64,000 nucleotides of DNA, from assembly GCA_021650895.1 (NCBI GenBank), contig CP091278.1, positions 1,765,659-1,829,658 of the forward strand. The letters are read 5' to 3'. Below are positions 46,774-49,928 of this stretch, piece by piece (the stretch's first letter is position 1; the number at the start of each line of letters is the position of its first letter). The position numbers and the translations under genes are program-made. This DNA comes from Candidatus Jettenia sp. Lineage in GTDB: Bacteria; Planctomycetota; Brocadiia; Brocadiales; Brocadiaceae. The notes under the pieces were generated by a model. That model saw only the letters and a list, made by a program, of their open reading frames with translations, did not search any database and was not told the DNA's origin.

Positions 46774-48084
46774 ATGGCCATTATAAAACCATTTCAAGGA
46801 TTACGATTCAACCAGGATATTATCCATGATATTTCCTCCGTTGTAACACCGCCTTACGATGTGATTTCGCCTCAAGACCAGGAGCGGTATTATCAGGCTC
46901 ATCCGAATAATATTATTCGCCTGGATCTGGGAAAGGATATTTCCGGCGATACCGAAAAAGTCAATAAGTATACCCGCGCGGCTGAATTCCTTAATAATTG
47001 GAAGAAAAATGGGATACTCAAACAAGAGGATGCGCCCGCAATTTATATTTATGATCAGGAATTTTTTTTTGACAACAGATGGATACCCCGTAGAGGTTTT
47101 ATTGCACTGGTAAAGCTAGAACCCTTTGATAAAGGACATATCTACCCCCATGAACAAACCCTTTCTGGGCCTAAGATTGATCGTTTAAAGCTTATTCAGG
47201 CATGCCAGGCAAATCTGAGTTCTATATTTGCCCTTTTTCCTGATGAAAATAATATAGTCGATAACTATTTATCAAAGATAACTATAACGAAACCAGAAAT
47301 GGATTTTCTAGATGACGCTGGTGTAAAAAATAAACTTTGGGTAATAAAGGAAAAACAGACTATTGATAGAATAGTTACCCTTATGGGGGAAAAACCTCTT
47401 TTTATAGCTGATGGACACCATCGGTATGAGACTTCATTGACCTACAAAGAGCAAATACATAAGGAACGTAACATCCCTAGAGATAATTTGCCGGTAGATT
47501 ATGTAATGATGATGTGTGTATCAATGGGTAACCCCGGGTTGAAGATCCTTCCAGCTCACCGGTTGGTACGCCACCTAAAGGACTATCGTTTCGAGCAGCT
47601 CCTCCAATCGATAAAACAAGCTTTTCAGGTCAAATTATTAGGTAAAGGCAGCCGATTAGAAGATTGTATAGCAAAACTCCATACGGAAACAGAAAACCAT
47701 ACTTTTGTGATGTATGTTGGTCAAGAGGATACCTACTATACCTTGCAATTAAATAATGAAAGGTTATGGGAAGATACATTCGCCAATGACCATCCAGAAT
47801 GGAAACATTTGGATACCGGCATCCTTCATGGTATGATTATCAACAAGATATTAGGTATAAACTCTCTTGATATTACCTCGAAAGATCATGTGAAATATGT
47901 AAAAGATGAAACAGAAGCTGTAACACTGGTAAAATCAGGCCAATATCAATTAGCATTCTTCCTGAAGCCTACTCTTATTGAGCAGGTAAAAGAAATTGCC
48001 ATGGCACGCAAGGTTATGCCGCCAAAATCGACGTATTTTTATCCTAAATTAATTACAGGCATCGTTATCAATAGTTTAAATTAA
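46774..48084 (+). CDS. DUF1015 family protein
   Basis: 436 residues, seven bases after ahcY. The family pattern is clear: the N-terminal IKPFQGLRFN, SSVVTPPYDVISPQDQE, YQAHPNNIIRLDL, then RRGFIALVKLE.F..G.IYPHE.TL, and FIADGHHRYETSL about residue 211. DUF1015 (SpoU-/'HTH-domain'-annotated) proteins are widespread in anaerobes and have no established reaction; the conserved DGHHRYE suggests an enzyme. Its place between ahcY and the riboswitch-controlled methionine genes hints at a role near one-carbon or amino-acid metabolism, but that is inference only. Confidence 0.9.
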   Translation: MAIIKPFQGLRFNQDIIHDISSVVTPPYDVISPQDQERYYQAHPNNIIRLDLGKDISGDTEKVNKYTRAAEFLNNWKKNGILKQEDAPAIYIYDQEFFFDNRWIPRRGFIALVKLEPFDKGHIYPHEQTLSGPKIDRLKLIQACQANLSSIFALFPDENNIVDNYLSKITITKPEMDFLDDAGVKNKLWVIKEKQTIDRIVTLMGEKPLFIADGHHRYETSLTYKEQIHKERNIPRDNLPVDYVMMMCVSMGNPGLKILPAHRLVRHLKDYRFEQLLQSIKQAFQVKLLGKGSRLEDCIAKLHTETENHTFVMYVGQEDTYYTLQLNNERLWEDTFANDHPEWKHLDTGILHGMIINKILGINSLDITSKDHVKYVKDETEAVTLVKSGQYQLAFFLKPTLIEQVKEIAMARKVMPPKSTYFYPKLITGIVINSLN

Positions 48085-48114: not shown

Positions 48115-48143
48115 TTGACAGACCATATATTTTTCGTTATAAT
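48115..48143 (+). promoter_or_regulatory. Consensus sigma-70 promoter for the SAM riboswitch transcript
   Basis: TTGACA (48115-48120), exactly 17 bp, TATAAT (48138-48143). Both boxes are perfect. Transcription should start near 48150, just before the aptamer. Confidence 0.9.
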
Positions 48144-48163
48144 AGTTCAACATTCGTTCGTCT

Positions 48164-48282
48164 TCTTATCGAGAGTGGCTGAGGGACTGGCCCTGCGAAG
48201 CCACAGCAACCGATCTTATCCGGTATGTTCAGGATAAGATGCTGGTGCTAATTCCTGTCTCATGATTTGGGAAAAGATAAGA
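48164..48282 (+). promoter_or_regulatory. SAM-I (S-box) riboswitch aptamer
   Basis: P1 is TCTTATC (48164-48170) with GATAAGA (48276-48282). The core has GAGAGTGGCTGAGGGACTGG, CCCTGCGAAGCC, CAGCAACC, a P3 stem with ATCTTATCC/GGATAAGAT, then GGTGCTAATTCCTG, all strongly conserved in S-box RNAs. SAM binding stabilises P1. The transcript continues into a terminator and the threonine-synthase-like gene, so expression should be high only when SAM (methionine) is scarce. Confidence 0.95.
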
Positions 48283-48292
48283 TAGGGAAATA

Positions 48293-48333
48293 AAAAGCCT
48301 CTTCCTATCTTATAGAGAGAAAGAGGCTTTTTT
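48293..48333 (+). terminator. SAM-dependent terminator with competing antiterminator
   Basis: AAAAGCCTCTT and AAGAGGCTTTT form a terminator stem followed by Ts. The overlapping TTCCTATCTTAT (48302-48313) can instead pair with ATAAGATAGGGAA, which includes the 3' strand of P1. So P1 formation (SAM bound) frees the terminator, an OFF switch. Confidence 0.9.
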
Positions 48334-48361: not shown

Positions 48362-49606
48362 ATGGGATTTGTAAAAGGTTTAAAATGCCGGGAGTGTGAA
48401 AAGTTATATCCAAAGGAGCCACTACATGTTTGCAGCTTTTGTTTTGGTCCTTTGGAGGTTGATTACGATTATGATGAAATTAAAAAAGTCCTTACGAGAA
48501 AAGTCATAGAATCTCGCGGTAAGACAATGTGGCGTTATCTTGAGCTACTTCCTATTGATGGAGAACCTACTGTTGGCGCGCAGGTTGGTTTTACCCCTCT
48601 TATTAAGGCAAACAATTTGGCTAAGGTCCTTGGGGTTGAAGAACTCTATGTAAAAAACGATTCAGTAAATTATCCCACGTTTTCTTTTAAAGATCGGGTT
48701 GTTTCGACAGCGCTAACAAAGGCGATAGAATTTGGATATAAGACGGTAGGTTGCGCGACAACAGGAAATCTTGGAAATGCGGTAGCTGCACAATCTGTGC
48801 AGGCAGGCCTGGAAAGCTACATCATTATGCCAGCCGACCTTGAACAAGGTAAGATAATAGGAACTTTAATCTACGGCACGAACGTAATAAAAATTAAAGG
48901 AAACTATGATAATGTAAATAAACTCTGCTCAGAGATTGCTGATAAATATGGATGGGCCATTGTAAATGTAAATTTGAGACCTTACTATGGCGAGGGGTCG
49001 AAAACGTATGGATATGAAATCATGGAACAACTCGGATGGAAAGTACCGAGACATATTATCGTTCCCATGGCAGGCGGGTCTTTAATTACAAAGATAGAAA
49101 AATCTATTAAAGAGTTTGCAAAATTAGGGCTTATTGATACAGCAGATACAAAATTACATGGCGCCCAGGCTACAGGAAGTTCTCCGATAACCACAGCAGT
49201 CAAGGCGGAAACCGATATAATAAAACCGGTAAAGCCAAAGACGATTGCGCAATCAATTGCAATTGGTAATCCAGCTGATGGATTTTATTCTGTGAAAACC
49301 ATTAATGTATCAGGCGGATGGGCAGAAGATGCAACGGACGATGAACTCGTGGAAGGTATTAAATTGCTCGCCAGAACTGAGGGTATTTTTACAGAAACAG
49401 CAGGCGGTGTGACTGTAGCTGTAACAAAGAAACTCATCGAGCAAGGTAAAATTCCCCGGAATGAATCTATTGTAATTAGTATTACAGGAAATGGACTAAA
49501 GACTCAAGAGGCAGTGCTCAATAAGTTAGAAATTCCAAAAATTATCAATCCTTCCCTCGCTGAGTTTGATGCTATTATGGAAGAAAAGATGTCTGCTGTA
49601 CATTAA
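48362..49606 (+). CDS. Threonine-synthase-family PLP enzyme under SAM riboswitch control
   Basis: 414 residues with AATCGGAGG upstream. The zinc-ribbon N-terminus (C9, C12, C24, C27) is followed by a fold-type II PLP domain: YPTFSFKDR with Schiff-base K110, the phosphate/PLP loop TTGNLGNA, GNYDNVNKLC and VPMAGGSL. This is the ThrC family, which normally turns O-phosphohomoserine into threonine. The riboswitch and a ThiS-like gene 34 bp downstream suggest instead use of O-phosphohomoserine plus carrier-bound sulfide to make homocysteine, much as CysM uses O-phosphoserine and CysO-thiocarboxylate. That activity is inference; plain threonine synthase or cysteate synthase remain possible. Confidence 0.9.
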   Translation: MGFVKGLKCRECEKLYPKEPLHVCSFCFGPLEVDYDYDEIKKVLTRKVIESRGKTMWRYLELLPIDGEPTVGAQVGFTPLIKANNLAKVLGVEELYVKNDSVNYPTFSFKDRVVSTALTKAIEFGYKTVGCATTGNLGNAVAAQSVQAGLESYIIMPADLEQGKIIGTLIYGTNVIKIKGNYDNVNKLCSEIADKYGWAIVNVNLRPYYGEGSKTYGYEIMEQLGWKVPRHIIVPMAGGSLITKIEKSIKEFAKLGLIDTADTKLHGAQATGSSPITTAVKAETDIIKPVKPKTIAQSIAIGNPADGFYSVKTINVSGGWAEDATDDELVEGIKLLARTEGIFTETAGGVTVAVTKKLIEQGKIPRNESIVISITGNGLKTQEAVLNKLEIPKIINPSLAEFDAIMEEKMSAVH

Positions 49607-49640: not shown

Positions 49641-49928
49641 ATGTCAGTAACTGTGCGTATCCCAACACCACTGAGAGCCGTTACTAAGGGAGCTGATGAG
49701 GTAAAGGTGGATGGGAAAAATATTAAGGATATTATTGAAAATCTTGAAGCCAATTATAAAGGGATTAAAGAAAGAATCTGCGACGGCGATGGTCAGATTA
49801 GAAGATTTATCAATTTTTATCTTAACGATGAGGATATCCGATTTATGGGTAATTTAAACACACCGACAAAAGACGGTGATTACATATCCATAGTACCCGC
49901 TATTGCTGGCGGAAATTATAGAATTTAA
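49641..49928 (+). CDS. ThiS/MoaD-like ubiquitin-fold sulfur carrier
   Basis: 95 residues from the ATG at 49641, with AAAGGAG upstream. The beta-grasp pattern is MSVTVRIPTPLR, then VDGKNIKDIIENLEANY, FYLNDEDIRF and DGDYISIVPAIAGG. Gly-Gly is at 90-91 and is followed by four residues, NYRI. A terminal Gly-Gly is needed to form the thiocarboxylate, so a JAMM-type protease (as for QbsE or HcyS) would have to trim the tail first; none is in the window. It sits in the SAM-riboswitch transcript beside the ThrC-like enzyme, which makes it a candidate sulfur donor for homocysteine synthesis. Confidence 0.9.
   Translation: MSVTVRIPTPLRAVTKGADEVKVDGKNIKDIIENLEANYKGIKERICDGDGQIRRFINFYLNDEDIRFMGNLNTPTKDGDYISIVPAIAGGNYRI

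What the first reader, a model, noticed from the sequence alone, without database searches (positions are those of the whole stretch)
49905..49925. Sulfur carrier ends GG-NYRI and needs a protease
The Gly-Gly needed for thiocarboxylation is followed by four residues. Carriers such as QbsE and HcyS have similar short tails removed by JAMM/Mec+-type metalloproteases. A tail on this one predicts a processing enzyme elsewhere in the genome and could be a control point.
Basis: partly seen in the sequence, partly recalled or inferred. Interest (0 to 1): 0.5.

Follow-up and report, generated by a model that had tools for sequence, protein, structure and literature searches.

The report
Sulfur carrier with a disposable tail

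Summary
Window 49641-49928 (+) encodes a 95-aa CysO/ThiS-type carrier ending AIAGG-NYRI (NYRI, NYRI, NYRF in three species of the genus). The predicted protease exists: the single-contig genome has a JAMM gene with an intact HxHx7SxxD motif between CysM and TusA, about 1 Mb away, and a second JAB beside an E1 in a defence-like pair. The carrier follows a threonine-synthase-like gene under a SAM riboswitch. The genome has a second threonine synthase, and searches found no MetB/MetY/MetZ enzyme or DUF39, so the pair is best read as MetM/MetO-like homocysteine synthesis. Comparison supports trimming: GG is fixed in 123 distinct carriers, while what follows is nothing, 1-24 residues, or a whole NIL or E1 domain. 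Tailed or fused carriers lie in JAMM-positive genomes (62 of 65; 26 of 27 in a second sample), against 10 of 15 and 21 of 31 for bare ones. The residue after GG is never Asp, Glu or Pro (0 of 127), though these are common further along. Otherwise the tail drifts, even by frameshift, so a conserved control role is unlikely. JAMM-trimmed carriers are already known; this is a new member. Cleavage was not demonstrated.

The parts
48115..48143 (+). Promoter-like site TTGACA-17-TATAAT
   Evidence: 12 of 12 consensus letters; the only perfect match in the 64-kb window, 0.12 expected
48163..48283 (+). SAM riboswitch (S box, RF00162)
   Evidence: 85.8 bits, gathering score 44.4
48292..48332 (+). Terminator-like hairpin with U run between riboswitch and gene
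   Evidence: -17.5 kcal/mol, z -3.63; not listed by the simple terminator scan, whose loop limit it exceeds
48362..49606 (+). Threonine-synthase-like PLP enzyme, MetM-like by context
   Evidence: TIGR00260 281.9 bits, cut-off 167.1; 54% identical to the carrier-linked enzyme of Phormidium
49641..49928 (+). Sulfur carrier, 95 aa, MetO/CysO-like
   Evidence: PF02597 E 2.7e-13; nearest solved structure M. tuberculosis CysO by sequence and fold
49908..49913 (+). Gly90-Gly91, predicted thiocarboxylation end
   Evidence: Invariant in 123 of 123 distinct carriers
49914..49925 (+). C-terminal tail NYRI, predicted to be removed
   Evidence: Sequence; variable or absent in relatives

Best explanation
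The carrier is a MetO-like sulfur donor for homocysteine synthesis, made as a blocked precursor. A SAM-controlled operon makes the ThrC-like (MetM-like) enzyme and the carrier ending GG-NYRI. A JAMM protease, most likely the one encoded between CysM and TusA, cuts after Gly91. An E1 of MoeB/ThiF type, with a cysteine desulfurase or rhodanese as sulfur source, turns the freed Gly into a thiocarboxylate, and the ThrC-like enzyme uses that sulfur to convert O-phosphohomoserine to homocysteine. Shown here: gene content, riboswitch, fold, fixed GG, the tail-JAMM association and the bias at the residue after GG. Inferred: the cut itself, the thiocarboxylate, the substrate and product, and which of the two JAMMs acts.
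For: JAMM present with intact motif, beside CysM and TusA, closest in fold to P. furiosus JAMM1 bound to SAMP2. Tailed or fused carriers are in JAMM-positive genomes: 45 of 45 full-length ones in the class, 62 of 65, 26 of 27. Fixed GG with drifting tail. No Asp, Glu or Pro directly after GG, 0 of 127. Two of the three E1-type genes have a cysteine desulfurase or a rhodanese next door. SAM riboswitch before the ThrC-like gene here and in relatives. Second ThrC in the genome; no MetB/MetY/MetZ enzyme among the eight PF01053 matches that could be named and no DUF39. Relatives of many phyla have ThrC, carrier, E1, JAMM and CysM side by side.
Against: No cleavage, thiocarboxylate or activity data. 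In this genome the JAMM is about 1 Mb from the carrier. JAMM is also kept in most genomes whose carrier has no tail (10 of 15; 21 of 31; 8 of 9), so it must have another task as well and presence alone proves little. Four tailed carriers lie in genomes without a JAMM match, as does a fragment in G061. NCBIfam calls the PLP enzyme threonine synthase, above its cut-off. The ninth PF01053 match was not identified.
Confidence: 0.78

Rival explanations
1. The carrier is mainly a CysO-type donor for cysteine synthesis by the distant CysM, and the JAMM acts like Mec+ to free cysteine from the carrier; tail removal is a by-product of the same activity.
For: Closest solved relative is CysO; CysM and JAMM are neighbours, as in 13 of 31 JAMM loci examined; JAMM is kept in many genomes with bare carriers.
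Against: The carrier is coupled to the ThrC-like gene and a SAM riboswitch, not to CysM. The two tasks are compatible, so this may be an addition rather than an alternative.
Confidence: 0.3
2. The carrier is, or also is, the MoaD of molybdopterin synthesis.
For: TIGR01687 moaD_arch match just above cut-off, 50.3 against 49.5 bits; no other MoaD found with PF02597 at E up to 1, only ThiS and a false hit.
Against: No molybdopterin gene recognised beside it; SAM riboswitch; MoaE was not searched.
Confidence: 0.2
3. The tail is never removed and the carrier works without a free terminal Gly, for instance as a non-covalent partner of the PLP enzyme.
For: Cleavage was not observed; JAMM and carrier are not linked in this genome.
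Against: GG is fixed while the tail drifts; the residue after GG is biased; whole domains follow GG only in genomes with JAMM, 13 of 13 and 8 of 8.
Confidence: 0.05

Closest known systems
MetM/MetO of Streptomyces albulus (Hasebe et al. 2024; not held, known here from passages of PMC12172450, and recall)
   Same: ThrC-like enzyme encoded next to a sulfur carrier, with a SAM riboswitch upstream; O-phosphohomoserine route to homocysteine
   Different: Whether MetO has a tail or needs a JAMM is not known to me; activity here is untested
HcyS/HcyD and QbsE/QbsD (recalled; primary papers not held)
   Same: Carrier with residues after GG and a JAMM enzyme
   Different: Here the JAMM is encoded about 1 Mb away, the PLP enzyme is ThrC-like and no O-acetylhomoserine-type enzyme was found
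CysO/CysM/Mec+ of M. tuberculosis (partly recalled; operon type in PMC1779556)
   Same: Closest carrier structure; CysM and JAMM adjacent
   Different: Carrier has a tail and sits with the ThrC-like gene instead
DRJAMM and MoaD-MoaE of Deinococcus radiodurans (PMC8832034, passages)
   Same: JAMM cuts a linear fusion and leaves a C-terminal Gly
   Different: Molybdopterin pathway; a whole domain rather than four residues

Membership tests
JAMM-trimmed sulfur carrier (QbsE/HcyS kind) | Beta-grasp carrier with GG followed by extra residues | tested here: met
JAMM-trimmed sulfur carrier (QbsE/HcyS kind) | JAMM with intact metal-binding motif in the genome | tested here: met
JAMM-trimmed sulfur carrier (QbsE/HcyS kind) | JAMM encoded beside the carrier | tested here: not met
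   About 1 Mb apart in this genome; side by side in a number of relatives. I do not count linkage as essential to the kind
JAMM-trimmed sulfur carrier (QbsE/HcyS kind) | Cleavage after GG | not testable with these tools
   Needs protein work
MetM/MetO | ThrC-like enzyme encoded next to the carrier | tested here: met
   34 nt apart; relatives
MetM/MetO | SAM riboswitch upstream, as reported for S. albulus metM | tested here: met
   not universal, since the Microcystis gene lacks it (PMC12172450)
MetM/MetO | Separate threonine synthase and no other known homocysteine route | tested here: met
   one weak PF01053 match left unnamed
MetM/MetO | Homocysteine from O-phosphohomoserine and thiocarboxylated carrier | not testable with these tools
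   Needs an enzyme assay
MetM/MetO | Direct sequence comparison with S. albulus MetM and MetO | not tested
   Those sequences were not fetched
CysO/CysM/Mec+ | Carrier encoded with CysM and JAMM | tested here: not met
   CysM and JAMM are together, the carrier is elsewhere
SAMP1 (archaeal modifier) | NCBIfam NF041918 above its cut-off | tested here: not met
   53.2 bits, cut-off 60
MoaD (molybdopterin synthase small subunit) | Sole MoaD-like protein, with MoaE present | tested here: inconclusive
   moaD_arch 50.3 bits, cut-off 49.5; no other MoaD by PF02597; MoaE not searched

The most novel reading that the evidence does not exclude
One tail-bearing carrier and one JAMM form a shared sulfur hub: the trimmed carrier feeds homocysteine (ThrC-like enzyme), cysteine (CysM) and, since no other MoaD was found, molybdopterin too. 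The tail is an evolutionarily free peptide that the protease limits only at its first residue, and in other lineages it has grown into whole NIL or E1 domains released by the same cut.
Probability: 0.2. Interest if true: 0.6.

Novelty: new member of a known kind. Interest (0 to 1): 0.42.

Why it matters
It gives a testable route to methionine in an anammox-type genome (order Brocadiales, inferred from near relatives labelled Candidatus Brocadia) in which no known homocysteine enzyme was found, and a simple annotation rule: a carrier with residues after GG implies a JAMM in the genome. The drifting tail against a fixed GG, and the bias against Asp, Glu and Pro right after it, are sequence-level evidence for cleavage that can guide assays, including for carriers fused to NIL or E1 domains.

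Tried and rejected
Rejected: sequencing error (tail kept in three species). Rejected: tail sequence as a conserved signal. Rejected: the third PF02597 hit (L005) as a MoaD; it lies in a 512-aa frame, E 0.858, that by eye is an exported peptidyl-prolyl-isomerase/DsbA-like protein. Rejected: the PF01053 hits as MetB/MetY/MetZ. Nine matches were found, six above Pfam's cut-off but each over only part of the profile, best 38.5 bits; the eight with loci score best as BioF/Kbl-type enzymes (three), a cysteine desulfurase, two aminotransferases, SelA and a sugar aminotransferase; the ninth (25 bits, below the cut-off) was not examined. The ThrC tree resolved little (10 of 21 inner branches open) and shows the genome's second ThrC only as a very long branch. 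Riboswitch negatives say little because those loci hold about 1.5 kb upstream. Paper searches; on MetM/MetO they gave one relevant paper; Hasebe 2024 was not held.

Full report
Observation. The ORF at 49641-49928 (+) encodes 95 residues ending AIAGG-NYRI. Pfam ThiS covers residues 5-91 (E 2.7e-13). The nearest solved relative is M. tuberculosis CysO, by sequence (3dwg_C, E 4e-24) and by fold (TM 0.88). In the AlphaFold model only residues 91-95 fall under pLDDT 50.

Surroundings. The carrier starts 34 nt after a threonine-synthase-like gene (48362-49606; TIGR00260 281.9 bits). Upstream lie the only perfect consensus promoter match of the window (48115-48143; 0.12 expected), a SAM riboswitch (48163-48283, 85.8 bits) and a hairpin followed by a U run (48292-48332, -17.5 kcal/mol, z -3.63). 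In the order, the riboswitch was found in 16 of 20 loci fetched with up to 2 kb flanks; of the four without it, two are cut by contig ends before the place. In loci with only about 1.5 kb upstream it was found in 5 of 20, and in 4 of 16 chosen loci of other phyla. SAM synthetase and S-adenosylhomocysteine hydrolase lie further upstream on the same strand.

Pathway. The genome (3,822,769 bases, one contig, 99.89% complete) has a second threonine synthase. The search for the MetB/MetY/MetZ family (PF01053) gave nine partial matches, best 38.5 bits, while all 14 control genomes rang. Six exceed Pfam's cut-off, but the eight that could be examined are other PLP enzymes. DUF39 (PF01837) gave none; 3 of 14 controls rang. 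Three E1-type genes exist: one followed by a cysteine desulfurase, one followed by a rhodanese-like gene (the latter named by eye), and one paired with a JAB in an arrangement that resembles a defence system, below that model's cut-off. The ThrC-like enzyme is 54% identical to the carrier-linked enzyme of Phormidium and 31% to the genome's second ThrC. PMC12172450 (passages read) reports that MetM of Streptomyces albulus, a homocysteine synthase with a SAM riboswitch upstream, is 51.6% identical to the ThrC of Microcystis, whose neighbour is a carrier similar to MetO; that ThrC also makes threonine in vitro. The MetM/MetO-like reading is therefore inference from context and kinship, not a test of activity.

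Protease. Two Prok-JAB genes were found above the cut-off: one at 798.8 kb between CysM and TusA, one in the E1/JAB pair at 2.82 Mb. The first has the HxHx7SxxD motif, as do 31 of 31 JAMM loci examined, which are this one and the 30 best of the class. Of these 31, 28 have TusA and 13 have CysM within the fetched flank. Its model is closest to P. furiosus JAMM1 in complex with SAMP2. PMC8832034 (passages) reports that a Deinococcus JAMM cuts a MoaD-MoaE fusion and leaves a C-terminal Gly. PMC1779556 (passages) proposed that JAB enzymes free fused ThiS/MoaD domains and lists operons of ThiS/MoaD, E1, JAB and cysteine synthase.

Tail and JAMM, three samples. (a) Class: 57 of 75 genomes match the carrier. 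Of 54 full-length carriers 45 have a tail and 9 end at GG (counted by hand). All 45 tailed genomes and 8 of the 9 bare ones have a strong JAMM (E 1e-17 or better); the ninth, G064, has only weak JAB matches. A fragmentary tailed copy in G061 (77% complete) has no JAMM match. Four other matches were fragments and are not counted. (b) The best 80 of at least 568 loci, from many phyla: 52 with tails of 1-16 residues, 13 fused, 15 bare. Six fusions are to a NIL domain (Pfam) and seven to an E1 (three by Pfam; all seven by similarity). JAMM was found in 49 of 52, 13 of 13 and 10 of 15 (p 0.005, or 0.02 if one weak JAB counts). The three tailed exceptions may be gaps: L113's contig ends about 215 bases after the carrier, where sister genomes carry E1 and JAMM; L147 has relatives with similar tails and a JAMM; L170 is a 0.9-Mb assembly. 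(c) Planctomycetota at least 90% complete: 155 of 393 genomes match. I read the 56 outside the class with E 1e-20 or better, giving 58 carriers; further copies in three of these genomes were not read. JAMM was found with 26 of 27 tailed or fused and 21 of 31 bare carriers (p 0.007, or 0.014 with a laxer cut-off). The exception G236 has a congener with JAMM and nearly the same tail. By family, 18 of 18 with a tail have JAMM against 2 of 6 bare-only families. Some genomes occur in more than one sample, and genomes are related, so the p values are rough.

Residue after GG. Among 123 distinct carriers of samples a and b, 0 of 87 short tails and 0 of 13 fusions have Asp, Glu or Pro directly after GG, against 12.6% in codons beyond the stop and 30 of 231 later tail residues (binomial p 1.3e-5, or 0.0004 over 63 distinct tails). 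In sample c it is 0 of 27 (p 0.04). Pooled, 0 of 127, with at least two carriers counted twice. I chose this grouping after seeing the tails, so the first p values are optimistic; sample c was drawn afterwards and is the fairer test.

Drift. In one genus near-identical cores end bare, with a 13-residue tail reached by a one-base shift right after GG, and with an unrelated 7-residue tail; other close pairs differ by stop loss or a frame change at the same spot. Selection thus seems to end at GG and the next residue, which fits a removed peptide and speaks against a conserved control role.

Conclusion. The prediction of a JAMM in the genome is borne out, and the comparative data make cleavage likely. 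JAMM is also kept where carriers are bare, so it has a further task, perhaps release of cysteine as in Mec+ (recalled). The system joins two known kinds, MetM/MetO-like synthesis and JAMM-trimmed carriers, so it is a new member rather than a new kind. Cleavage, thiocarboxylation and substrate remain untested.

Noticed in passing
G000 whole genome; L004; L005: PF02597 at E up to 1 finds only this carrier, a ThiS and one false hit, so no separate MoaD was seen. Anammox nitrite oxidoreductase needs molybdopterin (recalled), so the carrier may double as MoaD.
   Followed up: partly
L121, L127, L130, L133, L134, L145; by eye also L218, L226, L231: The same carrier is fused after GG to a NIL domain, a domain also tied to another homocysteine route (PMC5764234, passages). 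JAMM is present in all of these genomes.
   Followed up: partly
L002 1417-3297 (-): E1-like and JAB genes side by side, resembling the cap2/cap3 parts of an anti-phage system but below the model cut-offs.
   Followed up: no
L070-L081, L083: In part of the order the JAMM frame is about 220-240 aa; the three printed (L070, L073, L076) have hydrophobic stretches after the catalytic domain that look like a membrane anchor.
   Followed up: no
window 46774-48084 (+): A DUF1015 protein is encoded between S-adenosylhomocysteine hydrolase and the riboswitch-controlled operon; its role is unknown.
   Followed up: no
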